From: Siphlonurus alternatus
Lineage: Eukaryota; Arthropoda; Insecta; Ephemeroptera; Siphlonuridae
Reading direction: 5' to 3'
NCBI GenBank assembly: GCA_949825025.1
Contig: OX463787.1
Coordinates: 2,232,001-2,296,000 of the forward strand
Length of the DNA stretch: 64,000 bases
Under the pieces are notes generated by a model. It did no database searches. It was not told the origin of the DNA and saw only the letters and a list, made by a program, of their open reading frames with translations. Shown here in pieces: positions 25,543 to 64,000 of the stretch. The number at the start of each line of letters is the position of its first letter. Positions within the stretch are counted from its first letter, which is position 1. The position numbers were made by a program, and so were the translations under genes.

Positions 25543-25548
25543 TTTATT
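25543..25548 (-). terminator. Polyadenylation signal overlapping the stop codon
   Basis: On the minus strand the stop TGA (25550-25548) runs directly into AATAAA, which begins at the A of the stop codon (TGAATAAAAC). If it is used, the 3' untranslated region would be only some 20 nt. Confidence 0.5.
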
Positions 25549-28500: not shown

Positions 28501-31500
28501 TCTAAACTTATTTCACAGAAACTTGATTTTTCTTGATAGATTTGAATTTCATGTTTCAATTTGGAATTTTCAGTACTCAGTTCAGCAGTTTTAGCTTCGC
28601 ACAAACATTCTTCAACCTCTTCGAAGGTGTACTCTGTACTTGACAAATCAGTTGAATTTTTGCATTTCAATAATGTTGAGTTTTGTTGCAACTTGTGTAT
28701 TTCACTTTTTAACAATAAATTCTCGTTGTTAAACAAATTACTTTTAGAGTTGCATGCCAAAAGTTCAGCTGCATGGTCTTCTTTTAAGGATATGGTGAGA
28801 TATTGGTTCTTCTGAATTTCATATTTGGCATCATTTAAGTCAATAGAGCAAATACTTGAGCTATCTTGTAGATCAATTATTTGATTATTTAGGTTTGCTA
28901 TCTCTTGTGCAAACAGAGAGGTATCATTTTGACATGAATCAGCTTCATTTTCAGCATCTACTGACGTTGTTGTATTTTTACAGTCCTTCAAAGCTGACTT
29001 AACTGCTGACAAATATGTCTTGCAAAATGTTGAGTTTTGTTGTAAATCTAGAACTTCAGATTCCAACTGTGCGTTGTCATTACTCAATCTCTCATTGTCA
29101 CTCCTCCATGACATTATTTCAGCTTCATGTTGAATTTTCAAAAAATTTGTTTCATTATTGCACTGAGTCAATATCATGGCTTCCATGGTCAGTAGGGCTG
29201 CGTTACAAACGCTTAGATTCTGTTGAAGATCAATATTTGAAGATACCTCTTGTAAAATGGTACTATTCAGTAGATGGACTTCATTTTTGCACAACGCTAT
29301 CTCGTCCTTGAGAGATTGTGTTTCTTCGCGAGTACATCCTGTTGGTACCTCTTTCTTATTATTTAATTGATATTCAAGAATTGCAATTTTAATGTGCAGC
29401 ATTTTGTTGTCTTCCTCCCGTTCTTTAAGGGATATTTTTAAAAGTGTAACTTCACTTGAAAATATCTCTTTATGACTACGTTCGAAATTATTAGCGTGTG
29501 TCAAATTTAGTATTTGTTCTTTCAGACTAATAATTTCAATTGATCTTTCCTGTAAGATTTTTTCTTGATTTTTCACTTGATTTGTTAGGTTTTCAGCCAT
29601 GTTCATCTAGAAAATGAAAGTAATTGTAAGTTTGTGAAATTAAAGAATATACACCTAAATATCCATCAATAAAGTAGGACTCTAAATAAAAAAAAAAAAA
29701 TAGAAGGATTTTTTTAATTGAAAAAGAAATCAATAGAAGTATATTTTTGCGGCTTATTATATTTTCTTACCAAAGAATTCTCTAGCACGTCATTTGGTTT
29801 GGTTGAGGTACTCTGCACCTGCTGCTGTCCATTCCCAGGTAAATTTTGGAAACCTAAAAAAGACGATTTGTTTTTCAAGGATACACCCGTATAAGCTTGG
29901 AGCTCGAGGCGGAGTAATGGGTAGGGATAACGCAGAGAAAGGATGGTGTCCACGGCCTGCTACACGTCCTAGCATTTACTCTGGTGAGATTGAGTGAACC
30001 TTGGAAAACATATTGCCCTCAGAATGTACACATCTACTTTTTATCAATGAAACAAAGTGATGTCCAAGGCCTGAGAAACTACACACAAGTGTATCACTGC
30101 AAAAGGTGGCGAAAACTAAATGAATTTACCCCAGAGAAAAAGCAACGTAAATTTTTCTTGAAATGGTCACCTATCCAAGTACTAACCACTCTCGATGATT
30201 TTTTAAATGCTATAGGTTTTAACATATAACATAAAATTTGTCACATATAATATGCTTTAATAATTATTGTTGCATTTTTAGCGTTAATTTTGTTAAATTA
30301 CTAAAAATGAATAAAAACATTATTTCATTTTCCATCATATTAATTAAAAAAAATGGCAATTGGATTGTACATTGGCACAATTGGCACTCTTGCAAAACTG
30401 CATTTTAATTTTAATAAGTTAAATGTACATTATGACATTTGTAACCACGCTACCTTTTTTTTTTTTTTTTTTCTTGTATCGATAGTCGAAAAATTTATAA
30501 GAAAATCAAGCATTATATTGATGTAACCAAAATTTTAATAATAAGAATGCACAACTTAAAAATATTTTTTATGAAGAGCTAATATTAAACATTACGATGA
30601 ATCAATATAATTTTGTTGAAATAATTATTAATTTTAGCAACATATAAAATTATATTTATTACCTTTTCTCTAATTTAAATGAACTCTGCAATATATGCTT
30701 ATTAATTTGACCGTACCATTTCAGAGTTATTTGTAAATTTTCTATTTAAAATCGTGTGTATTAATTAAGTATTTGTAGAGGGAAAAAAAAAAGAAAAAAA
30801 AATCAGAGTAATAACTTCCTAAATTCCTTGAAGTTAGGCAACTTGCATGCCCAGCACCAAAGCAAGTAGAAGAACGATGACGATGATTATTGTCCTTGCT
30901 GCATACGTCACCACTTATTTTTTTATTTACTTTTTTTTTTTTTTTTTTTTTACAAGGATACACCCCTAAGAACTTATAGCTCGCAGCGGGGTAGTGGGTA
31001 GGGATAAGGTAGGCAAAGGATGGTGCATGGCCACGGCCTGTTTCGCGTTCCAGCATTCGCTGAGGTGAGACTGAGGGAACCGTGGAAAACCTCAGTCAGG
31101 ACGGACACATCTACTTTTTATCAATGGACCAAAATGATGTCCAAAGCCATACACACACAAATGCATTACTGCATGTACCAGGTGGAAAGTGAGACGAATT
31201 TTTACCCCAGGGAGGGAGCAACATAATTTTTACTTGAAACGGTTACCCATCCAAGTACTAACCACGCTCGATGTAGCCTGACTTCGGTGATCTAACGAGA
31301 ACCGGTCAATGCACCGCGCCACACACTTGACCACATGCCGTGTTATATAACACGTCATTTGTTATTATTGGAATCGAAAATATTTCTTAATGAAAGACAG
31401 GGTCTCATTATTTAAACATTAAAACTTTTAACTAGCTATATATCGAATTCCATCCATCATTTGAGATAAAACAAGTCACTATATACATATATTCACCAAA

Positions 31501-41864: not shown

Positions 41865-44800
41865 TCAGTTAAAGCGAAACTGCCTGGCCGGTTTGATGCT
41901 GACGTAGGTCTTTTTGACGTCCTCCTCGTCGTCCTTCTTGACCTCCGTGAAGCGCTCGCCCTTCAAGCTGACGATCTTGTTGTCACGATACCGAATCAAC
42001 TTCTTGGGCTCCTGTTAATAGATAAAAAATAGCAAAATAAATAAGTAAAATAGCAATTTTTTTTCAACACAAATTCTCAAAATTTTCAGGTGATGGTTAT
42101 AGTACAGGTACGAGTTTATTATCTGAAAATAAGGTTAAAGCTTCTTGGCAGATTGTAAAAAAAACAGCTAATGTTTCAAAATTAACTGGGTGTTTTAACT
42201 TGCCTGAGCTAGCAATAAATGGTCAAATAATTACCTCTCCTCAAGATGTTTGTAATTCATATAACAGTTTTTTTATACAATCGGTTGATGACTTAATACA
42301 TGAAAATTTTACTGAAAATATTGACAATAATTCAGAATTTGTTATACCTAATAATAATAATACCCCTTTTAAATTTGAATTAATTAATTATGATATGATG
42401 TTAAAAAAAATTAAAGCACTGCCAAATAAAAATGCAGCAGGGCCTGATGAAATACCCTACACAGTGGTTAAATTTTGTGATAAGTTGTTGTCAGTACCAC
42501 TTACATATTTAATTAATTGTTCAATTAAAGAAAATAAATTTCCAAAAATATTAAAAAAATCAGTGGTTACACCGTTATTTAAAAATGGTGACACGCATTT
42601 ACTGAAAAATTATAGAGCTATATCAAAAATTTCGGTATTTGGCAAATTATTTGAAGGTATATTGGATGATCAATTAATGACACATAGATTAGAAAACAAT
42701 TTAATATCACCCAATCAACATGGTTTTGTCAAAAATCGTTCAACGGCCACAGCCATTTTTGATTTATTAAACTCAGTTTACACAGCAATTGACAATAAAA
42801 AATACTGTATAGCAATATTTTTTGATTTATCTAAAGCATTTGATTGCCTTGAAAAAGACGTAATTTTATCAAAATTAAAAAATATTGGATCAGATGATAA
42901 CAGTTTAAAATTAATTGACTCTTATTTAACAGATCGTTTTCAATATGTGGAATTAACTTACGAGCAAAATAGTCAGAAATTAGCAGTAAAATCTAATTTG
43001 TTGCCCGTTTTGCATGGAGTGCCACAAGGAGGGAAGTTATCATGTAATCTTTATGGAACAGGAACGAATGACTTGCCAAATTTTATATCTAATGCGAAAA
43101 TTATAAAATACGCGGACGATAAAACCGCTATTGTAACAGCAGACTCCGAGGAAGACCTTATTATGAAAGTAAAAATTACCATAACAGAAATGCAGCGATG
43201 GTGCATTAGCAATAAATTGTTGCTAAATATAGACAAAACTGCATTTATTCAATTCCACTCTCCTAGAAATATACAGAATTGTAGCTACCTATTTCAATTA
43301 AATAATAAATCAATTCAAAGAGTAAGCGATATAAAATTCCTTGGTTTAAGTATTAATGAGAGATTAGATTGGACTTTACATGTTGAAGCTGTGAAAAAAA
43401 AAAAAAAATTCAGCTAATTTTGTATTGTATTCTATAAGGGAAGTTGTATCATATGATTCCTTAATGGCAGTATATTATGCCTATGTTTACTCTCATTTGT
43501 CGTATGGCTTAATATTTTATGGTTCAAGTAATAAATTGTTACAAAAGGTTTTCATTTTACAAAAACGATCTTTGCGAACAATGTTGAAATTTAGAAAAAG
43601 GGACTCCTGTGTTACATATTTTAAAAGTAATAATATTTTAACTGTTCCTTGCATGTATATTGTTCATTGTGCAATGTTTAAGAGGAACCACCCTGAACTA
43701 TACAAGAGTTCTGATATAGTTCATTGCTATAATACAAGAAATAGAAACAATCCAGTGGTTGAAATACGGAACTCAATGTTTGCTGAGGGTAATCCTCATT
43801 TTCAATGTGCTAAGATTTATGATTTTCTTCCGTCGTGTTTAAAAAGCATTGAATCTGATTCTGTTTTTAAATCAAAGCTTAAATTGTTGATGATTGATAA
43901 AGAGTTTTATTCAGTAAAAAGTTTTTTTGCTAATAAGTTACCTGAGAATTGTTTAACCTAAAATCTTCAAATTAATCAACATTAAAATTTAATACATATG
44001 TAAGCTGATAATTTTTTTTGTCTGTTAGTATTATGTTGTGATAGTGTCAATTTATTGTTATTTTTTAGTGTGTTGATTGAAATTTTGACGTGATGTATGT
44101 TGTCTTGTACAACCTTTGCCTTCGAAATAAAATTATTATTATTATTATTATTATTATCCTAGAACACTCTTACTTTTGTTTTTCTTTTTATGCAGCATTG
44201 CAAAAAACTTTTTAGAAATTTCAAGATTATCTGATGAGGTTGAAAATTCACTAAATCTTTGTAGCTAATTCAAGTTAATTCTAGTTACAAGATAACTAAT
44301 TCATAATTAATAATCTTTATTGCTTTTCGATTGATTATACAAAAACTTTTTTCAAAAATAGTTTCGGGGACTAAAAAATAAATACGTAAATAAAAAGTCA
44401 ACAATATTAAACTCAAGACATAACGTCGATCGTTCATATTTATACATAAATAACAACTTGGATCACTATGCACAACAAAGTATATACATACACATCATAG
44501 ACCACAAAACAAAACGTCCACAACTGTTACAGATTGAGACACTTACGGACTTTGGTGCGACTGGTCTGTGCTCCCTGCTCGACTCTGCCTGGTCAATGTA
44601 AGAGTAGCGCGCGATGATCCGCTCCTTCAGCTGTTGGTCATCCACCTTCGGCTTGTTGCGTAGACCACCACTCTGTGAGACAAGACACGTCAGACTTATT
44701 GCACTGTACCTAACAAGAAGGAGCAAGGGGTGCATTCAAAATGGAGTATCAATCTCAATTTTTTTTGTTGCAGAAATGGATAGAGCGTGCCAAGTTTTGC

Positions 44801-45630: not shown

Positions 45631-48524
45631 AAATTCATAGTAACACAATAATCAGTGTACAAGATGCTCTGTATTCATTTCTGCAATGATTTTCTTCATG
45701 CAGGTTGTCTAAGAACTGACCTGCACGGAGTGGTGGGGGGTGAGGCTCTGTCCGGCCTCCTGTCTGTGCAGCACCAGCTGGGCGGCCTGACCGACGTCTC
45801 CCCCGGCGATGGCGAGGCAGTGACGAACCTCCAGCGAGCAGGCGGCCGGGAACATCTCCATCAGCAGCTGCAGTTGAGAGTCTATGTACGCCTGCTCCTG
45901 TGAGCAAACAAAGGGTGTCAGTTTATAAGAAATTAGCCGCCCCTTGAAAAAAGACCACACAGCAACTAATTACACAATAATCATTTAAAAAAAGGTTATT
46001 GTGTGTATCAAAATGTACTGATTGTGATACTAGACTAAATTATATACTAACAGAATCAAAGTATTTTTATTTTAGGAATAAAAATATAATCTTTGTTTAA
46101 ATTTAAAATAATTATTTAAATACTCTTGTCACATAGACAAAACTCAATAATAATTAAATGAAAATATTAATTTTTTTGTCTTTGATTTCTTGCGTTTTAT
46201 TTATGTAAAGGGTACACCGGACTTTTCGGAGAAAATTATAGATTTTTGTTCTTTTTGTTTTTTGTAAAACCTACAAGAGTAACTTCTGTGGCTTCTACAC
46301 TTCTCCTTCTCCCCCCCCCTCTTCCCTTTCCTCTTGTGGCAAATATTCACTCTCTGAACTCTCTACACCTCCTGTATCCCCTCCCCTCCCCTCCTGTGTC
46401 GGCAGATAGTCCCCTCCCTCACCTCCTGTGTCAGCAGATAGTCCCTTCCCTCACCTCCTGTGTCGGCAGATAGTCCCTTCCCTCACCTCCTGTGTCAGCA
46501 GATAGTCCCCTCCCTCACCTCCTGTGTCAGCAGATAGTCCCTTCCCCTCACCTCCTGTGTCAGCAGATAGTCCCTTCCCCTCACCTCCTGTGTCAGCAGA
46601 TAGTCCCCTCCCTCACCTCCTGTGTCGGCAGATAGTCCCTTCCCTCACCTCCTGTGTCAGCAGATAGTCCCCTCCCTCACCTCCTGTGTCAGCAGATAGT
46701 CCCTTCCCCTCACCTCCTGTGTCGGCAGGTAGTCTCCGCTGTCTGAGCTGCCGTCGCTCGTCTCCGACAGTTGGTGGACCCTCTTGGGCAGCTCCTTCTC
46801 CCAGCCAAGCTCCGAGGACTGAGAGCTGCCGCTGCTCTCCTGGTGAGTCCTCGCCACGGGCGGCAGAGGGGGCAGTTCGTAGCAAGCCTCGCCCTCTTTG
46901 CTGCCTGTAACGTCATTATTGTCAAGTTATGACAGAAGGTTGTTGTTGTTTAATTATGTATAATTACTGTATAACTTTAATGACATGAAAAAGTGAAGCA
47001 TATTTCAGTTAACTACAGTATAACAGATCTTAGTTTACATCTAGATAGTTCAGTATACTAGACGGCACCAGATATATAAGCCAATGAAAAGGTGGCCAGC
47101 TGTATATCAGCCTTTTCATTGGCTGATATATCTGGCGTCGTCTAGTCTAGTGAACTGTCTATTAGAGGTACTATAAACTAAGATCTGTTACACTGAAAAT
47201 AAAGGTTCATGGTTAACAAATTTGATATTTTTATTTGAAAATGTGAAACCCTCTTCTTTTTTTTTTAACCTTGTGAAATTTTAATGCACTAAAACAATCT
47301 AGTCTACAATGACCAAAATATTAATTGAAAATCAAGTTAGGTTACCAAGTTGTTTGGTTCTGTAATGGATGTTATCCACAAACATAAAAATACGATTCAC
47401 ATTAACAACTAATTACGCTTCTTAAAACATGAAAAGCGTCATAAACATACACACAAGATTTTATGGACAGTAAAATCTCAACTTTAGGAAGTTAATTTAC
47501 GAAGTTCAAAGGTCATAAAATCCAAATTCAAACTTTTTTTTTTATATAAATATAAAAATCTGAAAGCAGGAGGCTAGTACAAAGGACTCACCCCTTTTCT
47601 TGCTCTGACCAAGGTGTGTTGCGAGCTCGAACATCCAGGCAAAAACGGCGGCCGGCTGTATGATGGAGAACTCGGGCAGGTAGGCAGCCATCATCTCACA
47701 GAAGCCGTTGAGGTCGAAAGACTCCTCCGCCGCGGCGACGCTGCAACCGCTGCCGACCTCCGATCCCAGCTCCTCCAGAATGCTGACGACGTAACTCAGG
47801 ACGATTTCGTCCACCTGACTGGGGGGTGAAAGGAAGGTCAGTTAAGTTTATCTGCCTGAATTGCTACAACTGAGTATTGACATTAAAGAAAATAAATCAA
47901 TCCAGCATAAATTGCTCTTCTACTCTGATTTTTTAAAGATTATACAATGTTCGAAAACATAATTTTAAAAATTCATTATTTTTTAACATTACTCGTGTAA
48001 AGATTTTAAAGATTTAAACCTTAGGAATTTTTTTATATAAAAAAAAAACATAACATAATAATACGTAACATGACGCCATATCCCTTTACGGGGTAAGCCA
48101 GCAGCATTATTACCTCGGCCATCTACAATTTGCCCTCCAAAGCACCCAAAAATACCAAAGGTCATGAAATTGGGAAATAATGATAGATTTCAAACACAGT
48201 TGTAAGTTTTGCTACCCAAAGTACTGTACCACAAATTTGTTGTTTTCCATGAAAAAAGGTAAATTAAAAAAAAAATTGTAAATACATATTTACAAGACTT
48301 CACGATGTTTTCAAAGTTCAAGGCACAAAAAACTATCCTTCTGTCTTCCCTGAATGAGCAAAGGCAACATTAATGAGCCTGGTTTACAGTTTAATTTCAT
48401 CTATAATGCAACCTACACAAGATAAGCAGAATAATTACCTTAGCTGAGCGCTTGGAATGTATTTTCGTAAGAATTTAAACAAAGAGTCTTTGATGAGGTC
48501 CTCTTGATCTGCAATGGTGCTCAT
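41865..48524 (-). CDS. CUEDC2: CUE domain-containing protein 2
   Basis: Six coding exons: 48439-48524, 47592-47818, 46714-46904, 45721-45897, 44547-44672 and 41865-42011; phases 2,1,0,0,0 agree, giving 317 aa. The N-terminus ([18 protein letters not shown]) and C-terminus ([15 protein letters not shown], then [16 protein letters not shown]) match the conserved ends of CUEDC2. Exon 4 encodes the CUE domain with the MFP motif ([20 protein letters not shown]) and [13 protein letters not shown]; exon 5 has the conserved [20 protein letters not shown] segment. Known: CUE domains bind ubiquitin; vertebrate CUEDC2 has been linked to signalling and cell-cycle control. The protein is slightly longer than the human one (287 aa), the excess lying in a Ser-rich linker. 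TTGTTGCAG seven bases before the ATG suggests a 5' untranslated exon further upstream. Confidence 0.9.
42071..44157 (+). mobile_element. 5'-truncated non-LTR retrotransposon (jockey-like LINE)
   Basis: Inserted in CUEDC2 intron 5, opposite to the gene. The remaining frame (to 43416) encodes reverse transcriptase: AGPDEIP, the first catalytic motif [15 protein letters not shown] and the YADD box are all intact. After an A-run at 43395-43409 the frame shifts, and the C-terminal part continues at about 43410-43961 ([10 protein letters not shown]). The endonuclease is missing. The element ends in AATAAAATTATT with an (ATT)n tail at 44134-44157. Truncation and frameshift make it non-autonomous. 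Confidence 0.9.
44740..44976. repeat. Foldback element, family A, internally deleted
   Basis: Arms are present but the centre with the GTGACGTCAC pair is missing. It lies in CUEDC2 intron 4, about 70 bp upstream (in the gene's sense) of the exon-5 acceptor. Confidence 0.88.
45330..45535. repeat. Degenerate family A foldback copy
   Basis: The left arm is recognisable (CAGAAATGAATAGAAGGTGC, CAACTATTTTTAAATAATTA). The right arm is decayed. Confidence 0.5.
45581..45631. repeat. (AAAT)n microsatellite
   Basis: About 12 copies of AAAT in CUEDC2 intron 4. Confidence 0.95.
46386..46730. repeat. 32/33-bp minisatellite made of the CUEDC2 exon-3 end and splice donor
   Basis: About 11 tandem units, each with CACCTCCTGTGTC, RGCAGATAGTCCC and a C/T-rich spacer. 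On the minus strand each unit reads as the last coding bases of exon 3 (CTGACACAGGAG) followed by GTGAGG. The unit at 46713-46730 is the real exon end; the other ten lie in the downstream intron. Confidence 0.95.
47015..47195. repeat. Foldback element, family F
   Basis: About 180 bp between CAGTATAACAGATCTTAG and its inverse, with inner arms AGCCAATGAAAAGGTGGCCA and its inverse. A second copy is at 54216-54397. Confidence 0.85.
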
Positions 48525-53159: not shown

Positions 53160-55620
53160 CTAGGTCGTTTCCTCCGTCCCACCAGGCTCTGTTGCTATCG
53201 GAATCTCAATGTACTCGGTAGCATTGTCGGGAGGATGTTGTTCGTCAGTAGAGTACTCAAGTCCGTTGTTGCCGCTGAAGCCAGCTGGAGACACGAGGGA
53301 GTAGAGTTAGAATTGACGTTGTAAAGTACCATAGATGGCATTGAAAACAGCCTCGACAGAAGCAGAATGACTCAAGTACACGTGTACTTTAGTCAGTAGC
53401 AAAGCTCCGTTAAGTAAACAATGTCACTTTTAGAATCCACCAGGTGCCTGTCTTTATGATACTAATTGTTTATATTTATTCATAGAGGGGACGCCATACC
53501 CCTGGAAGTTAGGTGGGCTAAAATGTACTAGCATATTTACAAAATGCATACAGTAAAAACTCGTTATAAGGTAAAACTCTATTTTGTGTAAATGAGATTT
53601 GTGGTCCCGTTAAAAATAATTAGCATTGCGCAGATAGGTCAATACTCAATATAAGGTAAAATTTATTTCCTGGGTTCGTTGACTTTACGTTATAACAAGT
53701 TTTTACTGTATTTCAATTTCACCTTTTACATTTCTTTACTTAAAATTACTTTAATGTTGAAGGGTCATATGTTACAGGGTATAATTTGCCTCACCGTTTT
53801 GCACTGCCGTTTCCAAGATTCCGTTACCGCGGTCAGAGGTTGAGGGGTCTCCATCGTCACCCCCTCTCCCGTCGTCAGCCTCCGAGCCGCCACCTTCGTC
53901 AACATCCTCCGTCTCCTCGTAGTCCTGCAACATCATCAACAACAAGTTGTATAAAAACAAAAACAAAAAAAAAATAATAAATAAATTACTAAGAATTGAT
54001 GAAGATAGCAACAACAAAAGTTCAAGGGAAAACTTTTCGTTGGCAACCGTTCAGGAAAATTTCTTGCAATTATTTATCATATTCCAAATATTAGATCAAC
54101 ACACTTACAGATGAAATAAGGCCTTGTACTGTAAACAGTTTATGAACAAATTTCACTACTACACATTGTTGAAGTGACATTAGAAAATTTGTTCTGCCCT
54201 TTACTTAGAATGGTGTACAGTATAACAGATCTTACGTTAGTTTACCTGTAGACAGTTTAGTAGACTAGACGGCGCCAGATATATCAGCCAATGAAAAGGT
54301 GGCCAGCTGATATTCCAGCCTTTTCATTGGCTGATGTATCTGGCTCCATCTAGTCTACTGAGCTGTCAAGAGGTTAACTAAGATCTGTTATACTGTAGCC
54401 TCTTTGAAAATAAACTCAAATTAAAATACAGCAAAGAGATTTTTGATAATCATTCTCATCTTAAAACAATCTGGCCAAGTTAAGAAGTATCTAGTTGTTG
54501 CTCACCTTTTCCATTTCGTAGTCCTGGGTCTGATCCAAATCTTCATCATTGCTCGAGATGTCCACCGGTTCCACCTTTATCTCCTGCAAATAGAAACACG
54601 TTAGCGATCAAATTAGCAAATTGTGGTTACTGATTTAAACAACAAACATTGACTCTTTCAACATTAATTATTTAACACTAATAAATAACTATACAATTAT
54701 ATCTATGGGTCTTCAAACCAAAGTAACGAACCAAGTTAAGACAAAACAATCAACTTAAATGAAAAAATGACACAGCAAACTAAAAAGGTTTTAAGTAACC
54801 AGAAAGCTTCTTTTTATGCAAGTAAAATTCTTTGCATAGGCAGGACAAAGACAAAAAGAGTATCAACTTAATACTTAATAATTTAATTAGTGAATCTTAC
54901 GGACTAAATATAACCTCCAGCTAATATCATCATTGAAATTTTTTTAACTATAAAATATTATATGCTAACCTCGAAAGAGACGACCGGCGTGATCTCTATT
55001 CCGGGCGACTGCCTTTCCATCACGGGGAGTCTGGGGGTGACTACCACGACTGGAGTGGGGGGAGGTCTGGTGGCCAGTCTGGTGATCGAGACGGCAGACG
55101 AGTTCGGTAGGCGGGGGGTGTCTGCAGCGGAGGGGGGAGACACCGGCCTGTTGCGAGGACGCTGTGGGAGGGGAGGGGGGCGGTGGATGACGGGGGGTGG
55201 GGGAGGGGAGGCCACTCGCTTCCTCTTCACTCTGTAAACACAATAGAGAACATTCGTCAACATAAGAAATACATGAGCAATGAAGAAAAAGACTGTGATG
55301 AATTTCTATGCAAAGTTCAATGCAGTTAAAACAGGTTTCCTTGAATGTTTGTATTTTCAGGCAATCGACTCATTAATTATTGATCATGTTTGCTCAAACA
55401 GCCCTTATCTCAAGAAATACTAAGGCAGTTAATAATTACTGGTGGGAGTAGAAAGAAACTTGGCTCACCAAAATTTATGTACTGTACCAAAACCGTTTTT
55501 ATATGAATAGAGTACTCGAGTTGTTTACTAACAATATTTTTCAACTCTCTAACTCTCTAAAAATTGAAGGGAAAAAATGCTGTGACGTCACAGTCATGCA
55601 AAAACAAGACTTTAAAGGAA

Positions 55621-55669
<49 letters not shown>

Positions 55670-55688
55670 CAATACATAACACAAGGTC

Positions 55689-55735
<47 letters not shown>

Positions 55736-58330
55736 AAAAAAAAAAAAATCATACAAAATGAAGCTTCGTAATATATGTTCCTCGACAGGAAAATTTTCTC
55801 CAGAAGCCATTATGTTAGAAAATTTGAATATTTCTTAGAAACTATTAAAGCTATTAATTTGAAACCATATCCTACCCCCTTCTATCTCCCCCAACTCCCA
55901 TTTAGGGGTCTTCTGACGAGGAATAAAGAGCTCATTTTCCTCAAAAAAATTTCTTTAATGGAAATAAAATAATTAAAAAATTAAATTCAGAGGTACTTCT
56001 ACAAATATTCACCTTGGTGAGGGTGCTCTCTCCTCCTCCTCTTCCTCCTGCTGGTCTGGCAGGCTCGACGAAGGTCCAGCCAGCCCCTTGATCTGCAGCG
56101 ACTCCGCGGCGGCCAGCAGCGAGGACAACTGTTCGTGTTCGACGTTCACCTCTCCACGGTACATGAAGTCCACGAGGGCACGCAGCTCCCAGTAGCGCAG
56201 GTCGCGCGGCATCAGAATGATGGGGTGCTTGCAGGGGTTCTCACTGAGAAGACGCTCAAGGTAGGTAGAGCAAGAAGACAACACCACCTGGTGGCACAGT
56301 GGAGAGTTAGAAAGATTTGATTGTTTTATATCTGTTAGTGTTCTTTGAGAATATTTACTAGAATTGGTATTTTCAAATTTAGGAATGAAAAACTTCTAAT
56401 AACATTTTATTTAGCTCGTGGAAACTGGAATTCAAAACATTTTCAGCATTTTTCTAACAAAACTTGAATTTTGCTGATTTATTAATTGAAAGTTTCATCA
56501 GAAATATGAAAAAAGAAGCTACCTCCACTTTCCTACTTTTGATTTTTCTTGCTATCACAGATCACCTCATAATTATTAAACTAGTTTAAGTTGTTTCAAT
56601 CAACATTTATAGTTACGCCAACACAAGGAATTAAGAGATTCTTTCCGTCATAGTTAATAGTTTTAACTGTTATTCCAGACTTTGATACAATGTTTGTGTA
56701 GTCATACTTAGAATTATGAATGTTAAAGTAAACAAACTTATAAACGAAGTAGACAGAATGTTTCGATTTTAGATTGTGCTTGGAAATCCATCTTTTTGAA
56801 TACTGTGGAAGCAATTCAACAAGCGTTAATTGAGGATTGTTTTTTTAAGAAGAGTTTTTCTTCCGATATGAAAAACACCTCACCGCTTCTAAAGGCTTGC
56901 TGAATCTCTCCCTTTTATCTGAAATGAAATGACCTGAGACTGACCTTGTGGCACTTGATGCTGCGCCCCTCACAAGCCAATGTGACATCCACAAACTTCT
57001 CTCGGTTCAGCAGGTTCGGGAACATGGTCTGCATGTTCGAGTGGAAAGAGTTCCAGCGCAGACACACTTGCTGCGGCTCAGGCTCCATGTCAACATCTTC
57101 GGGGGGAGGGGGAGGGGGCGGACGAACACGCAGACGCATGTGCGGCTGTTGTGGCTGCTGCTGCTGGGGAGGAAAGATTGAGTTAGTCCACTATCACAAC
57201 TCTAGATTGATGAATTTTTGTATTACAGACTCAAAGGGGTAGGTTCAAGAAATTATTTAAGCCAAGCTTGTGCATGGAAGGGATTAGAGAGTAACAATGG
57301 GTAGCCACCTCCTTCCCTTTCTAATCAACTTATTTTTGTCCCTTACAGTCAGAACGTGGAAAAACGGATTGCAGATTCAGCAATCTTTGCCTGGCTTAAA
57401 TAATTTTTTTGCACCTACCCTTTTAAATAGAGGATACCAAATTATGTTACCCTAATTCTCAAATTTTTAGAGCTCTGGAAATATTTTTAAAAAAATTACT
57501 GAAATTACACAGATAGGAGTCTTTTCTCAATAAAAGAATGGGACCTAAAAGGGGCGTGGGTTCAACCCGGATCTCTGCAAAACATTTTAGCATTTTTGAG
57601 CAAAAATCAATATATTTGGTTGTGATCCATCAGGGTAAAATTTCTTGTTCATTAGCTTCCGCTTCAACAGTAGCAAATACTCTTTACAAAATCATCATCA
57701 GATCACAAACTTTACCACCATGGGAAATAATGAACAGAAAGGTTCTTTGTCTACTAATGACTGGGGATGTTACAAACACGACTAAAACACGTTTTATGTG
57801 ACAGTGAACTTGAGAATGGACAACCTGCATGGACAATTTTAATGTTGAAATGAATAGAGAGTGCAAAATTATGCTACTCAGATTGTTTTCAGATTTTTTA
57901 GAACCAACAATTTATTGCGAGCACAGAAAGAGGTGCCACTTCTTCATAAAAGGATAGTGACTAAAAGGGATGAGGGTTCAAATCTGACCTCGACAAAACA
58001 TTGCATATCTTCATGGCTTCTAAAAAATTCAGAGTAGCATAATTTGATGTCTTCTATTCATTTCTGCAATAAAAAATTCCATGCAGTTTGTTCACAGCAG
58101 CTTGATTCTCACCTGTGCTGGACGTGGCTGGATTGGCTTTGGCAGCAGTCTGGGTGCTTGCTGCTGCTCCACGTACGGGTTCATCACCATGGGGGGTGGT
58201 GTGCCCGGGTCATTCTTCACGAAGCCAGACGTGGAGGGGCGTGGGCCGTTATCTGCCTTGCGAGAGGGGCCCGGCGAGGGGGCCTGGGCGGGCCATGCCG
58301 TCTCGTTGGCACCCACCGCATCTTTGGGAG
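53160..58330 (-). CDS. Constant exons of a BTB transcription factor (435 shared residues)
   Basis: Seven exons: 58113-58330, 56945-57163, 56013-56287, 54970-55231, 54506-54583, 53795-53924 and 53160-53284; phases 1 (in),0,0,2,0,0,1 all agree and a TAG ends the frame. In order they encode a Pro/Gln-rich linker; a BTB domain split over exons 2 and 3 ([56 protein letters not shown]); an acidic run; a basic nuclear signal (VKRKRV); a Pro-rich part; a sumoylation-type site (IKVEP); and an acidic tail. The LRWN start is typical of the arthropod tramtrack group, whose BTBs multimerise. There is no zinc finger after the BTB, unlike most of that group. The first exon has no early ATG of its own, so translation must begin in one of the five upstream cassette exons. 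Confidence 0.88.
53549..53711. repeat. Foldback element, family G
   Basis: Ends TACAGTAAAAACTCGTTATA and its inverse. Located in the last intron of the BTB gene. Confidence 0.8.
54216..54397. repeat. Foldback element, family F
   Basis: Second copy of 47015-47195, in an intron of the BTB gene. Confidence 0.85.
55624..55732. repeat. A-run and (AT)n tract
   Basis: About 40 A residues at 55624-55665 and about 20 AT units at 55692-55732, in an intron of the BTB gene. Confidence 0.95.
57417..58085. repeat. Two degenerate family A copies with tRNA-like centres
   Basis: Partial copies at about 57417-57620 and 57846-58085, sharing ATTATGCTACTC and TTTCTGCAATAAAAAATT. Their centres have GGGGCGTGGGTTCAACCCGG and GATGAGGGTTCAAATCTG, like the variant at 50697-51022. 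Located between the first two constant BTB exons. Confidence 0.65.
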
Positions 58331-59207
58331 CTGCAACAAGAGGAAGAGGGAACGTTAGTTTTGTGTCAACGTATGGTCAGTCCCAGAGAGGAAACGGAAC
58401 ATGAGAGAAAGGTAAAGAAACAAATTAGTCAAAATGGCTGGAGAGACCAATAACGGGTGACTGCGTAATTCAATCAAAATTCAACAGGTGCGATAGAATC
58501 TACTCATTTGCAGCATACTTTAGTATTTAAGAACAGCGCTTCAAATTTGCTGGATTATCCAAGTTCGATCACTGTAAGTGTAAATATCAGTTTAAATGTA
58601 CAATATATAATGTTTTCAATGGACACTTTATTGAACTTTTTATCTTATGACGATAATGTTTATGCTCCTAACTGGTATATAGGTTTGTTTTAGTGTAAAA
58701 TTTGTGTCATTTAAAGCTTTCTATCTGTCGTAATGGTTCCTTTACAGCATATAGGCACCTAACAACAACAATGTTATCAATAATCTTATAAACTTACAGC
58801 AACATCTATCTGTTGTTTCTCATATTTCTAATGTAATGTAACTACAATGGAATATAGCAATAGTAAAAACAAAATAGCAACAATAAAATTCAAAATGTAT
58901 TTTCGATCATTGCATTTAGTTTAGCATATTATCATTTTTAAAAATAAAATGCAATACAAATAAGTAAAATGGATTTTAAAATAACAATAAAAAATTTCTA
59001 AATTCTTCCAGAAACAGAATTCACTATTTAATTTATACAATTAAATATGCATATAACCTTCAAACGAACTTTACAGTTTTTACAGGGGTATTTCATCATT
59101 CTTATACATAATCAATATCACATAATTGGTATTTATCATTAAATTCAATCACTTTATCATTAATTTACAAGATAACGAGCTAAATAATAAAATTAGATAT
59201 TACGTAC

Positions 59208-59448
59208 GTGGTTCCATATGATTGATATGATATTGCGGAGGCGGTGGTACGCTCTGATATGGTAAAGGTGGAACATAATCTAACGTCGTATTATGTTCAG
59301 GATTTCTAATATGAGTAGCTAAATGACTTCTAATATTTGATGTATTATGATACGACATTTGCCTCTGACATACGTTACAAATAACTACATTTTCTGAAAC
59401 TAATGTACAATATTTCCAAACTTTTGAATGTCTTCTTTGAGAACTCAT
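59208..59448 (-). CDS. Alternative first exon 5: BED zinc finger
   Basis: 80 codons plus one base, from ATG at 59448 to the donor CCAC|GTACGT. It encodes KVWKYCTLVSENVVICNVCQ followed by HNTSNIRSHLATH: the aromatic start and C-x2-C...H-x3-H pattern of a BED finger, a DNA-binding domain known from chromatin-boundary proteins and transposases. A Pro/Tyr-rich linker follows. Spliced to 58330 it gives a 515-aa BTB protein. It is the cassette nearest to the constant exons. A YY1/Pho-like AAAATGGCGGC (about 59576-59586) lies upstream. Confidence 0.8.
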
Positions 59449-59628
59449 TATTAATTTGAATATTCCGCGGTATTAAATATAACGTAATAATTTTTTTACA
59501 CTTGAAAACACGGTAAAAGATGCGAATGATAACTTTTTCACTATTGAGAAAAAAAGAAGCCACACTGTGAAAACAAAATGGCGGCTGTAACGGGTGAATA
59601 ATATGAAAATTTATGGCATAAATTTTAC

Positions 59629-59962
59629 CTTGTTTCAAAGTAGTTTTAGAAGGTTTTATTCCTTCTACCGATGTTTGTTTCACCACAATTTCTTCTGGAA
59701 GACATTGATGAAATCTCAAAGTACTTGTACCTTGAGACGAACCTTTAAATGTATATACTTTATAACACTGATTACATGCGACTAATCCTTCGCAATGTAT
59801 TCCTGTTGAAACAAAACGAACTGGACCGAATCGATTCCAAACATCACTTTTAGTACTTTTATTATGTCTCCATGGACCACGATTTATTTCAAGAAACGGT
59901 ATAAATTCTGCTACTCCCTCTACTAATAGATTTCTAACATGCTGTTTACTTGCTAGGTCCAT
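59629..59962 (-). CDS. Alternative first exon 4: BED-type zinc finger
   Basis: 111 codons plus one base, from ATG at 59962 to the donor CAAG|GTAAAA. The central part reads KSDVWNRFGPVRF, then LVACNQCYKVYTFKG and TSTLRFHQC, a BED-like pattern C-x2-C...H-x-C with the WxxF start. It gives a 546-aa protein when joined to 58330. An RFX-type X-box lies about 155 bp upstream at 60116-60129. The open frame continues past the donor for about 80 residues without any motif, so splicing there is preferred. Confidence 0.78.
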
Positions 59963-60115
59963 GATAAATACTAAACTACGCAGCAGTTTAGACGAGGGGA
60001 GTATAGCGGGAAAAAAAAAAAGCAGATAAAATTGTTTCCCCTCTCTTCAAGGCTGAAACCGGCTAAACGAAACCGGATGCACTTGAATCCGGTTTAAAAA
60101 ATCAATACTTGAACC

Positions 60116-60129
60116 GTTGCCATAGCAAC
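60116..60129. promoter_or_regulatory. RFX-type X-box
   Basis: GTTGCCATAGCAAC is a full match to the palindromic X-box consensus (GTNRCC, AT, RGYAAC). It lies about 155 bp upstream of the 59962 start, next to three AACCGG half-sites at 60056-60097. A promoter role is inferred. Confidence 0.45.
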
Positions 60130-60812
60130 AGAACTGCTAAAATAAAATACGTAATAGAAATTTTAACGTGTCGCTCAATGCTTACGAATTTTACCGGTAA
60201 ATTTTTACATTTCGAAGATTAAAATCATTACAAATAATATTGCCATTCTTTTCAATATTAAATTACACTTGATAAACGGTAAATGGAAAAAAAAAAAATA
60301 GAAAATAATTTTACCGGTAACTTACCGGTAAAAATAAATTTGTGAATTTTTAAAACCCTTGGCCGTTAATCATAAATGATATCAAAATAATATTGTGCTG
60401 CTTCCAATGATTTTTATTAAGACCATTTATTTAATATTATTTATTTATTCAGATTGCTGTATGCATACGCCCACTTGCGAAAGACACCAACGCAGACCGG
60501 CAAAAAATCATTCTCGCTTCATCATGGACCGGCGAGCAGCGTTGCAAAATTTAAAATTCACTCCCACTTTCCTGCATGCACATAAAAATTCAGTCTAAAA
60601 TACCATAATTATGCTGTCAAATATATACAGTGAAGCTTAATAAATATTATCAAGAAAACAGCTTTACGGATGAATACAAAATACAACATGAAATTTTAAT
60701 GTGATATTTCATTTTTCGACCTTTTATTACCGGTAAACTAATGCAAAAAGAAACAGAATGAAGGCGTAAAGTTTGTCGACAATAAATGCGACATCACTGT
60801 ATGCATACTTAC

Positions 60813-61062
60813 GCTGATGATTATGAGATCCCGTCAAACCCATCAAACAATTTCCGACTGTCAATGCACGTCCCTTGCATAGAGATCTCCGCTTACATCT
60901 CCAGTATATCTTATTATTTTCACGAGAGTAGCGATCTTTATGATAAACATATCCATTATCGTCAACCAATCGACAAATACCGCGTGAATTTTGTACGAAA
61001 TTGGTACACCCTGGAGTGAGAAAGTCGTATGTCGACGCCGGAGCCGACATTTTGTGTTTCAT
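60813..61062 (-). CDS. Alternative first exon 3: FLYWCH zinc finger
   Basis: Ends at the donor CAGC|GTAAGT in phase 1. It encodes a FLYWCH domain: F near the start (FVQNSRGICRLVDDNGYVYH), then IYWRCKRRSLCKGRALT and GSHNHQ, the F-W-C-C-H-x-H ligand order. FLYWCH domains occur in mod(mdg4) isoforms, where they bind protein or DNA. In-frame starts exist at 61119, 61062 and 61050. I prefer 61062 or 61050 because a CCAAT box (61101-61110) lies inside the longest version, where a promoter would be expected. Joined to 58330 it gives about 514-518 aa. Confidence 0.82.
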
Positions 61063-61100
61063 CGACAACGACGCCCTCGGCGTGGTGACGTGGCACTCTC

Positions 61101-61110
61101 TGATTGGCTG
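61101..61110 (-). promoter_or_regulatory. CCAAT box upstream of the FLYWCH first exon
   Basis: CAGCCAATCA on the minus strand, about 40-60 bp upstream of the preferred ATGs, in a GC-rich island with a CACGTCAC motif just downstream. It supports a separate promoter for this cassette. Confidence 0.45.
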
Positions 61111-61547
61111 GAGGAACATTCGGCCACAAAACTATTGACCCACTAGCCGCGGAGGCCCGCAGAGCGATGCAGTGAATATGCACAGGTCTTCGTGCTGTTT
61201 TTAAAAATTTGGAAGACGAAAGAGAGAAAAAAATATCGTGTTATTTTATCATAATTACTCCAAAATTACAACATAATGTCGAAATCTTAAAATATTATAA
61301 CAAAAACATTGATTTTATAGAAAAAAATATTATTTATCATTTCTCACTTTTGGTACCGGTGCAATCGAAATACCGGAAAAAAATTTAATGTATATTTACA
61401 TCTTTCCCATGGATAATTTTCCTCCATGATCTTTCCAATATTGCAGATTGAGTTTACGGCACAACAATTTTTTAAACTGGCAATGTGCTTGGAAAATCAC
61501 AAATCACAGTCAGTATCATTATTACTGGTAAATAATCTAAACGCAGT

Positions 61548-61812
61548 AGGTTTTAATCTTGGCCCATTTAAATCATTATTATTAGTATTATTATGATAGT
61601 CAGCAGCATTATTTAAAATGGAGCGAACAAATTCTGTGCTTCTCAGCAATGTAAACAAACGGTTACTAGTAATGGCACTATAATATCGCTGCGGCGTCTA
61701 TCCGTTGCTGATGTTGCGTTTCACTGGGTCGGGAAAACTGATAGCGAACATCTTTTCCGAATTTGTTTTGTCGGCCTCGAAGCCTGCATGTTAAAATTCT
61801 ACAAACAGGCAT
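61548..61812 (-). pseudogene. Decayed duplicate of the THAP first exon
   Basis: The segment aligns over its length with the intact THAP exon at 62006-62321 (shared GGCGTCTATCC, CTGGGTCGGGAAAA, TTCCGAATTTGTT, GAACAAATTCTGTG). From its ATG at 61812 it reads MPVCRILTCRLRG, keeping the first two zinc cysteines. A stop follows after about 43 codons (near 61678), the HxFP histidine region has decayed, and there is no clear donor. Confidence 0.8.
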
Positions 61813-62005
61813 GTCGAACTTGGCACGTTTATAAAAAAAAAATAAAATAAACACCGTGTATCATGATTAACAATGTTACCGGTAAATCTACTTGTAATAT
61901 TTTACCGGTAAAAAAAGGAACCAAATTCAAAATATACTGACATAGTAAAACTGAAATTTTAGATACCTGTACAACACTTAACAGGTATTGTGCGAAAGAA
62001 CTCAC

Positions 62006-62321
62006 CGGTAAATAAATTTAAAGACGGTACAGCAGTACGTTTCAATCTTGGTCTATTTATATTATCAAGAAATGCAAGTTTGTCTTTCGTAATATATTTA
62101 TCTTGATAGTCAGCAACATTAAAATGGCGCGAACAAATTCTGTGGTGAACATTGTACACAAACGGTTCACTATATGTAATGGCACTAGCTACGGCGTCTA
62201 TCCATGCTTGATGATGTAATGGTCGTTTTTCTGGGTCGGGAAAATTGTGATGGTAAACAACTATTCCGAATTTGTTATGTCCGTCTCGTAATTTGCACGT
62301 AAAAATGCTACACGCCGGCAT
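62006..62321 (-). CDS. Alternative first exon 2: THAP domain
   Basis: 105 codons plus one base, from ATG at 62321 to the donor ACCG|GTGAGT. It is a complete THAP domain starting at residue 1: MPACSIFTCKLRDG (C-x4-C), HNFP, AW, ICSRHF (C-x2-H) and an AVPSLNLF end that resembles the family AVPTIF box. Known: THAP is a zinc-dependent DNA-binding domain related to P-element transposase. Joined to 58330 it gives 540 aa. A decayed sister exon lies 0.5 kb away. Confidence 0.85.
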
Positions 62322-62626
62322 GGCGAACTTTCCACAACAAAATAACTTTAAATAAGGGCTGTATTCGGTGTGTTGCGATCAGAGATCAGAGGTTTAGAGT
62401 TAGAGATCGGTAGAATTCGTGAGCATTCGGAAACGATGAAAATTACACCAGCAGCATAGAGCTGCAAAAATTAATTAATAAATAATTATTCTCAGTCTGT
62501 AACTGACCAACCCTCAAAACAAGCCTTACCGGTAACATTTAAAGTATGCATAATGTAACATTTTGCTTTTACCGGTAAAAACCTTATTATCAACGCCCAC
62601 ACAGCTGTTGTTCGTTTCAAAAAACA

Positions 62627-62773
62627 ATGTATGACGTAAATAAAAATATACTAACCAAATTTATTTACCGGTAACATGTATGACGTAAATAAAAATATAC
62701 TAACCAAATTTATTTACCGGTAGCATGTATGACGTAAATAAAAATATTCTAACCAAATTTATTTACCGGTATA
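62627..62773. repeat. 49-bp tandem repeat, three copies, each with an ACCGGTA motif
   Basis: Three direct copies of ATGTATGACGTAAATAAAAA, ATACTAACCAAATTTATT and TACCGGTARC; small changes only. Located about 0.3-0.45 kb upstream of the THAP first exon. Confidence 0.95.
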
Positions 62774-62970
62774 AGTCGTGGATTCTATAACATTGGTAAA
62801 TAAATATAAAAAAAAGGAACAAATTTCAATAAAACTGAGACCCTAGCAGCAAATGTGGCAACTAAAACTACCCATGCACCTTGAACACCTGTGTATGAAA
62901 TATTATTTAAAATCAGTACATTTTACGATTTTATTTTACACAAGAAAAAATTGAATTTCTATATTCTTAC

Positions 62971-63172
62971 GTTTCTTCTTTTTGCAGGTCTCGTATCTAA
63001 GTTTGATAGTTTCTTTCGTGTCTGCTGCAATGTGATCACATTTCATGTAATGCTTGAAAAGTGCAGTAGCATTTTTACGATAAGGTGAATTACAAAACAT
63101 ACACAAAACCTTCGAAGGATTTATGTTATCCCCAGTACAATAGTCCCAAACTGCACATTTCGGTTTAACCAT
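62971..63172 (-). CDS. Alternative first exon 1: BED-like zinc finger
   Basis: 67 codons plus one base, from ATG at 63172 to the donor AAAC|GTAAGA. It encodes KCAVWDYCTGD, then VLCMFCNSPYRKN and ALFKHYMKCDHI: an aromatic start, C-x2-C and H-x3-C, a BED-like finger, followed by a lysine-rich end (KKKKR). Joined to 58330 it gives 502 aa. Further cassettes may lie beyond the right edge. Confidence 0.75.
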
Positions 63173-64000
63173 GATTAATCACGTTTAAAAATCAAGACAG
63201 AACTAGCACAACGCTTCCGTATCCATATTGTTGTGCGAAGTTACTAAAGAGGGTTGACGAAAAGAGAATTTCTACTCTTCACGCTGCTGTGAAAAAACTA
63301 GATACGTAAGCTCGAAAAATGAGAAACGAATATTTGATGCTGGGAACATTCGCGCGAAGATAAATTTAGCGGCAAAGTATCAAGTATTAACTCATTTCAC
63401 TGATTTTTTTATTATTATTATTTAGCGAACATACACATCTCTGTCACTATTTAGAACGTTTTTTACCAGAGATCTTACAATGTAAGCTCTTTGGTTTTAC
63501 TGACGTACCATTTATGCATAATTATGCTACGAGTAGCCTAAAAATAACCAAACAAATACCTCCGGTAAATACTTTTATCTTCTGCTTAATCAACATTATT
63601 ACCGGTAAAATAAAATATTAAGATTTAATAAAAAAATTATATTTAATGAAATTAACACAAATAAAGCGTTAATTAGGAGAAATTATAATATTGAACTAGA
63701 CCAACAAGGTGGCCCAAAGTTGATGTTAAATTATTTTAATTTTACCGGTAAAATAAACAAAATATTAATAAAAGTATGTATATAATATTTTTTTTACACG
63801 ATGAATAATTTAGAAATAAGACACCATTTTCATAATAAATGCCGCAACATTTCTATATATTACAACTTTAATTTTTACCGGTAAAATAAGATAAATACAT
63901 AAAATACACTCACTTGAATAATAATATTTCTGGAAACATGATGCCGGTAACTGCAGATGTGAAATTGCATCAATATGAAATTTAAATAAATGTTTCCATA
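63173..64000. other. Sequence upstream of the first cassette exon
   Basis: No coding exon was recognised. It contains three TTACCGGTAA-type palindromes (about 63599, 63742, 63877) and may include the promoter of the 63172 exon or an intron of a longer locus. Confidence 0.5.

What the first reader, a model, noticed from the sequence alone, without database searches (positions are those of the whole stretch)
53160..63172. A BTB locus that swaps N-terminal DNA-binding modules through five alternative first exons
Seen: five exons (63172-62971, 62321-62006, 61062-60813, 59962-59629, 59448-59208) each open with ATG, hold one whole zinc-binding domain (BED-like, THAP, FLYWCH, BED, BED) and stop at a donor in phase 1. 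The one constant acceptor at 58330 needs phase 1 and has no early ATG of its own. Five agreements by chance would be about 1 in 240. Known: lola and mod(mdg4) keep a 5' BTB and vary 3' zinc-finger exons; clustered protocadherins vary first exons. Inference: one BTB and tail is addressed to five kinds of DNA target by promoter choice, the mirror image of lola. I know of no described locus of this layout, and the mixing of three unrelated domain families is itself unusual.
Basis: partly seen in the sequence, partly recalled or inferred. Interest (0 to 1): 0.95.

Follow-up and report, generated by a model that had tools for sequence, protein, structure and literature searches.

The report
Tandem swappable DNA-binding exons before BTB
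In what is probably a mayfly, about twenty different, mostly DNA-binding-type modules lie in a row as alternative starting exons that could each be joined to one shared protein tail, which would let one gene make a whole family of gene-control proteins.

Summary
The five ATG-led, phase-1 exons are real; each reads open into a seven-exon BTB tail. They are only the near end of a longer array. The window's own genome shows it running about 51 kb further: 21 cassettes by my reading, all on one strand. Seven hold a Pfam domain above cut-off (THAP, FLYWCH, BED, Tc5, Myb); three are BED-like below it; ten form one zinc-finger-like family with no Pfam match above cut-off; one is unassigned. In the second half of each frame the strongest donor is phase 1 in 21 of 21, against 36 of 98 other frames. 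Insect orthologues carry different DNA-binding domains N-terminal to the same BTB and shared tail. Cassettes show little acceptor enrichment and CpG-rich upstream flanks; a duplicated cassette keeps an upstream block at 94% identity. First exons with their own promoters fit best, but no junction or start-site data exist here for this animal. Layout resembles clustered protocadherins (recalled); function mirrors lola. Ten literature searches found no description.

The parts
62971..63172 (-). Cassette E1: ATG-led first exon, BED-like CxxC...HxxxC by eye, phase-1 donor
   Evidence: (no Pfam match); duplicate at 65992-65779 outside the window, dN 0.085, dS 0.36
62006..62321 (-). Cassette E2: THAP first exon, phase-1 donor
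   Evidence: four THAP matches elsewhere in the genome are 34-38% identical
61497..61826 (-). Decayed tandem copy of the THAP cassette
   Evidence: alignment score 276, 100 shuffles at most 40; 4 stops inside the match
60813..61062 (-). Cassette E3: FLYWCH first exon, phase-1 donor
   Evidence: similar cassette fused to the orthologous BTB tail in Neocloeon P0003
59629..59962 (-). Cassette E4: divergent BED-like first exon, phase-1 donor
   Evidence: (below cut-off); no homologue at E 1e-3 in the large protein search
59208..59448 (-). Cassette E5: BED first exon, phase-1 donor
   Evidence: similar cassette before BTB in Pediculus P0090
63914..64000 (-). In-window part of a further BED cassette (whole exon 64136-63914), phase-1 donor CAA|GTGAGT
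   Evidence: the only match in the genome to the first 177 aa of Ephemera P0131
58113..58330 (-). Constant exon 1, common acceptor entered in phase 1
   Evidence: acceptor score 12.1
56945..57163 (-). Constant exon 2, linker and start of BTB
56013..56287 (-). Constant exon 3, rest of BTB (PF00651, 1e-23)
54970..55231 (-). Constant exon 4
54506..54583 (-). Constant exon 5
53795..53924 (-). Constant exon 6
53160..53284 (-). Constant exon 7 with stop codon
63222..63362 (-). Block upstream of E1, best-kept stretch between the duplicated E1 units; candidate promoter or 5' UTR
   Evidence: 94.3% against 88.6% in the exon, gaps counted; block limits set after seeing the alignment
60192..63883 (.). 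14 of the window's 16 TACCGGTA palindromes

Best explanation
The locus is a tandem array of alternative first exons. Each holds a start codon and one module, mostly of DNA-binding type, and ends in a phase-1 donor. Each is transcribed from its own promoter and spliced over the intervening cassettes, which lack strong acceptors, to a single acceptor of a constant BTB tail. The tail supplies oligomerisation and partner binding; the chosen first exon supplies the DNA target. Shown: exon structure, phase uniformity, one strand, N-terminal swapping in gene models and cDNA-like contigs of other insects. Inferred: use of every cassette in this animal, separate promoters, DNA binding (above all for the ten-copy family and the unassigned cassette, which have no Pfam match above cut-off), and any rule of choice between cells. 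The array grows by tandem duplication and decays (duplicated E1 unit, ten-copy family, dead THAP copy); several of the domain families are known from transposases, so some cassettes probably began as captured transposase DNA-binding domains.
For: Structure. Strand: 14 of 63 minus-strand frames of 70 aa or more in 58.3-122.4 kb hold a C..C-H-[HC] pattern, 0 of 45 plus-strand frames; tblastn of cassettes finds 24 bins on minus, 0 on plus. Phase: strongest donor in the second half of the frame is phase 1 in 21 of 21 cassettes, 36 of 98 other minus-strand frames; over the last two thirds 20 of 21 and 43 of 100. Cassettes beyond the window were picked by eye from frames before donors were scored. 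Other insects: variable domain N-terminal to the BTB, C-terminal part shared over 406-518 aa in ten of the twelve species sets with two or more isoforms of this gene that I name. Similar cassettes before the orthologous BTB (E-values for a set of about 50 preselected BTB proteins): E3-Neocloeon 9e-25, E5-Pediculus 2e-14, 64136 BED-Ephemera 7e-23, 70025 FLYWCH-Gryllus 3e-16, 111250 Myb-P0042 8e-53. P0042, P0017, P0024, P0026, P0035, P0040, P0067 are uninterrupted frames on contigs of 1.5-3.8 kb, so cDNA-like (inference). First-exon signs: best acceptor within 150 nt upstream is 8 or more in 4 of 19, 3.3 expected; CpG o/e of the 300 nt upstream 1.39 against 0.95, 0 of 5000 random sets; upstream block kept in the duplicate. 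E1 and its copy: dN/dS about 0.24.
Against: No RNA evidence from this animal. Initiator and TATA-like motifs are not enriched upstream of cassettes: 8 of 19 and 6 of 19, random 0.39 and 0.42. Within 300 nt the best acceptor is 8 or more in 8 of 19, 5.9 expected, median 7.8 against 6.7, and a good acceptor-like site (9.3) lies in the kept block upstream of E1 and its copy. E1 and E4 have no homologue at E 1e-3 in the large search. Fourteen of 21 cassettes have no Pfam domain above cut-off. Frames at 85546 and 98615 have no in-frame ATG before their conserved part and may be decayed or multi-exon. Zootermopsis P0020, Ephemera P0131 and four models with both BED and FLYWCH (P0050, P0079, P0098, P0121) hold two modules in one protein. 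Halyomorpha isoforms share only 36 residues at the C-terminus because their tails differ too, Cloeon models 376. Homologues were sought mainly among BTB proteins, so cassette relatives without BTB were hardly tested.
Confidence: 0.8

Rival explanations
1. Cassettes are mutually exclusive internal exons: one distal promoter and a non-coding leader are spliced to a chosen cassette's 5' UTR, then to the tail.
For: Acceptor-like sites of 8 or more lie within 150 nt of 4 of 19 cassettes and within 300 nt of 8 of 19, including a site kept between E1 and its duplicate.
Against: Little enrichment over random positions (4 against 3.3 expected, 8 against 5.9), while constant exons score 7.0-12.1; CpG retention is local to each cassette.
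Confidence: 0.1
2. Cassette RNAs are made as separate short transcripts and trans-spliced to the BTB tail, as in mod(mdg4) and lola.
For: Trans-splicing is the route at these two BTB swap loci (PMC11426971 section 5); separate cassette promoters would suit it.
Against: All cassettes found lie on the same strand upstream of the tail, which cis splicing explains without more.
Confidence: 0.07
3. The cassettes are separate small genes or domesticated transposase fragments with their own 3' ends.
For: Several families are transposase-type; the repeated family frames are about 100-210 aa and could stand alone.
Against: 21 of 21 phase-1 donors; similar cassettes fused to the BTB tail in other insects for five of 21; a genome search with one copy of the repeated family found 6 matches, all in this locus.
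Confidence: 0.02
4. Cassettes are joined in series in one mRNA.
For: Zootermopsis P0020, Ephemera P0131 and four Hymenoptera models hold two modules.
Against: Among the five window cassettes, acceptors open in the right frame exist only for E3 (-0.9) and E4 (1.7, -0.3), against 7.0-12.1 for the constant exons (the other 16 were not tested); the Neocloeon and Cloeon models and most Periplaneta models have one module each.
Confidence: 0.01

Closest known systems
lola and mod(mdg4) (Drosophila BTB loci)
   Same: One TTK-type BTB part combined with many alternative DNA-binding or FLYWCH exons.
   Different: There isoforms differ C-terminally (PMC11426971 section 5); here variable exons are 5' and BTB plus tail are common.
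Clustered protocadherins (recalled)
   Same: Tandem array of variable first exons, each with start codon and a uniform donor, spliced to one set of constant exons.
   Different: Cell-surface cadherin repeats of one family there; unrelated domain families here. Random promoter choice not tested.
Transposon-derived transcription factors (ZBED, THAP, CENPB, FLYWCH, HTH-Psq; PMC10027918, passages seen)
   Same: Same DNA-binding families.
   Different: Counted there as separate genes; here one locus holds many as alternatives.
Sister BTB paralogue (P0054/P0059, P0115/P0120, P0068/P0072)
   Same: Nearest BTB clade.
   Different: Isoforms share the N-terminal 293-302 aa and swap the C-terminus.

Membership tests
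TTK-group BTB transcription factors | TTK motif FxLRWN at the start of the BTB | tested here: inconclusive
   [10 protein letters not shown] in the tail, V in place of the motif's F (by eye; no motif model was run). BTB PF00651 1.3e-23; the CG6765 BTB ranks third among solved structures.
TTK-group BTB transcription factors | Hexamer formation | not testable with these tools
   Needs protein.
lola / mod(mdg4) type swap locus | Common 5' BTB exons, alternative 3' DNA-binding exons | tested here: not met
   Order is reversed.
lola / mod(mdg4) type swap locus | Several alternative DNA-binding modules on one BTB | tested here: met
   By sequence: seven of 21 cassettes with a DNA-binding Pfam domain above cut-off, all with phase-1 donors.
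Protocadherin-like variable-first-exon array (way of working, not family) | Tandem same-strand first exons with one donor phase and one constant acceptor | tested here: met
   by sequence only
Protocadherin-like variable-first-exon array (way of working, not family) | A promoter at each variable exon | tested here: inconclusive
   CpG and duplicate conservation for it; initiator and TATA motifs not enriched.
Protocadherin-like variable-first-exon array (way of working, not family) | Shared short promoter element | tested here: inconclusive
   TTTACCGGTAAA: 10 of 65 genome sites in the 57-kb array, but 3 of the 10 lie in a minisatellite and other TACCGGTA copies lie in introns or coding sequence.
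Protocadherin family | Cadherin domains | tested here: not met
   none among Pfam matches of cassettes and tail
Transposase-derived DNA-binding modules | Module belongs to a transposase-associated domain family | tested here: met
   BED, THAP, FLYWCH, Tc5 HTH in six of 21; not for the ten-copy family, all ten scanned.
Transposase-derived DNA-binding modules | Transposase body or terminal repeats beside the cassette | not tested
   Frames were read by eye only; terminal repeats were not searched.

The most novel reading that the evidence does not exclude
An insect-wide, several-hundred-million-year-old locus (age inferred from its spread) builds a family of transcription factors on one BTB tail by promoter choice among a tandem, fast-turning array of largely transposase-type DNA-binding first exons, about 21 in this mayfly: a protocadherin-style system for DNA targeting, possibly coordinated by a locus-enriched palindrome (TTACCGGTAA).
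Probability: 0.6. Interest if true: 0.95.

Novelty: new variant of a known kind. Interest (0 to 1): 0.9.

Why it matters
The BTB swap loci described vary the 3' end (PMC11426971). A 5' array would put the choice of DNA target under promoter control, so cell identity could be encoded by which first exon is on. It would also show one gene collecting transposase-type DNA-binding domains over insect history, and it gives a directly testable set of transcription factors with one body and about twenty heads. TTK-type BTBs can form hexamers (PMC11426971), so mixed cassettes in one cell could yield combinatorial complexes (inference).

Tried and rejected
Structure prediction of E4 and E1 alone gave mean pLDDT 45 and 71 and was not used. 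A search with E4+E1 found nothing at E 1e-3 among 64 candidates. A first all-against-all clustering of N-termini was spoiled by the shared linker and redone on cut cassettes, 49 of them. The baetid Psq cassette was sought in the own genome: 5 matches, none at this locus. TACCGGTA as a repeat remnant: flanks differ between copies, and a satellite with the motif on C1 matches the array only over 25-46 nt; kept as unexplained. One motif site lies near a BTB gene on C7 that looks Kelch-type by eye; dropped. Serial joining was tested on the five window cassettes only.

Rows dropped: P0131 (45 aa of BTB) from the tree; 199 sequences became 89 distinct. In one search the first exons of the two two-exon cassettes (69133-68916; 115103-114910), whose phase-2 donors fit their own second exons, were not counted; with both, 21 of 23. 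The two cassettes without an ATG before their conserved part were left out of the ATG-based tests (19 of 21). The junction-codon test used six species pairs that I chose because their last differing residue adjoins the shared motif; the other pairs printed there show the same residue (V) at that place, or for Zootermopsis join elsewhere, and would not fit if their first differing residue were used instead, so its 0.184-per-pair chance is not a fair probability.

Full report
OBSERVATION. The five exons are confirmed to the base. Each begins with ATG, is 1 mod 3 long and ends at a GT donor; seven constant exons follow from 58330 to the stop at 53160 and every cassette reads through without a break. 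Pfam supports THAP, FLYWCH and BED in E2, E3, E5; E4 is a sub-threshold BED and E1 has no match. To reduce the freedom of choosing donors, GTs were ranked with a donor weight matrix recalled from memory; the best is phase 1 in 5 of 5, with the named E3 donor ranking second behind another phase-1 site inside the domain.

THE ARRAY IS LARGER. The window is G000:C10:2232001-2296000 of a 455.7-Mb genome. Fetching 60 kb beyond its end shows further cassettes on the minus strand (window coordinates, add 2232000 for C10): BED 64136-63914; E1 duplicate 65992-65779; HTH 69133-68916 plus Tc5 67433-67216 (two exons, start of the second among three candidates); FLYWCH 70025-69740; ten copies of one family (72924-72360, 74851-74272, 82827-82239, 85546-85141, 88030-87565, 90553-90268, 92380-91825, 98615-98312, 102136-101680, 104740-104299); Myb 111250-110911; and a two-exon cassette 115103-114910 plus 113663-113086, FAR1- or FLYWCH-like by eye only, no Pfam match above cut-off when joined. 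With the five of the finding that is 21, by my own reading of frames of 70 aa or more; small or multi-exon cassettes may be missed. Counting Pfam matches above cut-off: E2, E3, E5, BED 64136, Tc5/HTH, FLYWCH 70025, Myb, seven of 21. The ten-copy family has none in any copy; all ten keep a C-x2-C...H-x5-H pattern, and seven of ten have the shared N-terminal part (by eye). A genome search with one copy found 6 matches, all in this locus; four of the ten copies were too divergent to be found, so this is a statement at that sensitivity. Strand was rechecked with one rule for both strands: 14 of 63 minus frames hold a C..C-H-[HC] pattern, 0 of 45 plus frames, and tblastn with the cassettes gives 24 bins of 400 nt on minus and none on plus.

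PHASE. The strongest donor in the second half of the frame is phase 1 in 21 of 21 cassettes and in 36 of 98 other minus-strand frames; from the last two thirds 20 of 21 and 43 of 100; from the last 40% 21 of 21 and 33 of 96. First exons of the two two-exon cassettes are not in these counts.

OTHER INSECTS. A search with the E1 isoform returned 449 proteins, 120 listed. Of the 120 listed, 109 have 50 or more residues before the BTB. Within species, isoforms share a long C-terminal part and differ before it: Neocloeon (FLYWCH, Psq), Periplaneta (six clusters), Cryptotermes (Myb, THAP, Tc5), Zootermopsis, Schistocerca gregaria and nitens, Athalia, Apis, Venturia, Microplitis, with Halictus as one more pair; Halyomorpha (36 residues) and Cloeon (376) share less. 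Of the 40 proteins scanned with Pfam, the DNA-binding matches of this gene's models lie before the BTB; P0116, a paralogue, has them after it, and some models have none. These are mostly automatic models; seven proteins are whole frames on contigs of 1.5-3.8 kb from source lgn, which I take to be assembled transcripts (inference). The BTB tree puts the window with Cloeon, Neocloeon and P0042 (85/98, drawn open; P0042 a long branch) inside the mid-protein group of 55 rows (94/74, not starred), next to paralogues that keep the BTB first and swap the C-terminus. Ephemera P0131 has a closely similar linker and a similar BED, so the animal is probably a mayfly. Some cassettes are old: a Myb cassette is shared by Blattodea, Hemiptera, Thysanoptera, Orthoptera and Hymenoptera at about 1e-36 or better, in a set of 49. 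In the same set E1 resembles Blattella P0014 (4e-5) and E2 Schistocerca P0023 (6e-5) only weakly.

JUNCTION RESIDUE. If the boundary splits a codon after its first base, isoforms may differ there only by that base. Six species pairs that differ there (S/A, P/A, F/V, V/I, V/L, V/L) all fit. These pairs were chosen by me; the others show V in both or join elsewhere and do not discriminate, so this agrees with a conserved phase 1 but is not a fair test.

FIRST EXONS. Within 150 nt upstream of 19 cassette ATGs the best acceptor reaches 8 in 4 (3.3 expected), within 300 nt in 8 (5.9 expected; median 7.8 against 6.7); constant exons score 7.0-12.1. CpG o/e in the 300 nt before the ATG is 1.39 against 0.95 (0 of 5000 random sets); for the 12 cassettes beyond 66,000 it is 1.24 against 0.90 (13 of 5000), for the 7 nearer ones 1.53 against 1.28 (171 of 5000); downstream of donors 0.92. 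The array part inside the window has CpG o/e 1.36, the 10 kb before it 0.66, window 1-45,000 0.92. In the duplicated E1 unit a block 50-190 nt upstream of the ATG, chosen after seeing the alignment, is better kept (94.3%) than the exon (88.6%), while the whole span is 70% with gaps counted; the block holds an acceptor-like site, which leaves the leader model open. E1 and its copy have dN/dS about 0.24; six pairs of the ten-copy family lie at about 0.3-0.6. Initiator and TATA-like words are not enriched.

A SHARED WORD. TACCGGTA occurs 31 times in the array and 2 times in the rest of the 123.5 kb examined; expectation in the array 0.4. TTTACCGGTAAA occurs 65 times in the genome (reversed control 42), 10 of them in this 57-kb array, 3 of these in a minisatellite at 91.2-91.4 kb. 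Of seven TACCGGTA copies in the E1 unit, three are intact in the duplicate, two changed, two in gaps. Some copies lie in coding sequence or introns. Unexplained.

LITERATURE. Searches (open-licence full texts only) showed no description of N-terminal DNA-binding swapping on a BTB. PMC11426971 (sections 5 and 9 whole, passages otherwise) states that TTK BTBs usually lie at the N-terminus, that isoforms differ C-terminally, and that CG6118 and bab2 have mid-protein BTBs. [quoted passage not shown] Other papers were seen as listings. Protocadherin facts are recalled.

VERDICT. The finding stands and understates the case. The working model is promoter choice among about 21 first exons; the splice and start-site proof is missing. 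On rechecking, confidence in first exons with own promoters was lowered from 0.82 to 0.80 and the leader rival raised to 0.10, because the 300-nt acceptor figures lean slightly that way.

Noticed in passing
window 60192-63883 and array to 110.5 kb; G000:C1:12272747: Palindrome TTACCGGTAA is strongly enriched in the cassette array; a separate cluster of 17 TACCGGTA copies, many at about 133-bp spacing, lies on C1.
   Followed up: partly
window 53160-63172: Third codon positions are 15-39% GC in cassettes but 55-76% in constant exons.
   Followed up: no
window 62520-63768 and 65466-66508: Tandem duplication of an upstream-flank-plus-cassette unit of about 1 kb, 88.8% identical over 986 aligned bases, gaps left out.
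   Followed up: yes
window 25548-29606, minus strand: Single open frame of 1352 aa, coiled-coil-like and with repeated TPR-like blocks by eye.
   Followed up: no
window 42041-43961 plus strand; 94719-97413 plus strand outside the window: Reverse-transcriptase-like frames of a LINE type by eye, the second inserted in the array on the opposite strand.
   Followed up: no
G000:C3:48181277, C4:16450627, C4:27394082, C1:54154912: Psq-cassette-like frames of 555-732 aa elsewhere in the genome, possibly transposases.
   Followed up: no
window about 46390-46735: Short tandem repeat seen by eye beside neighbouring open frames; period not measured.
   Followed up: no
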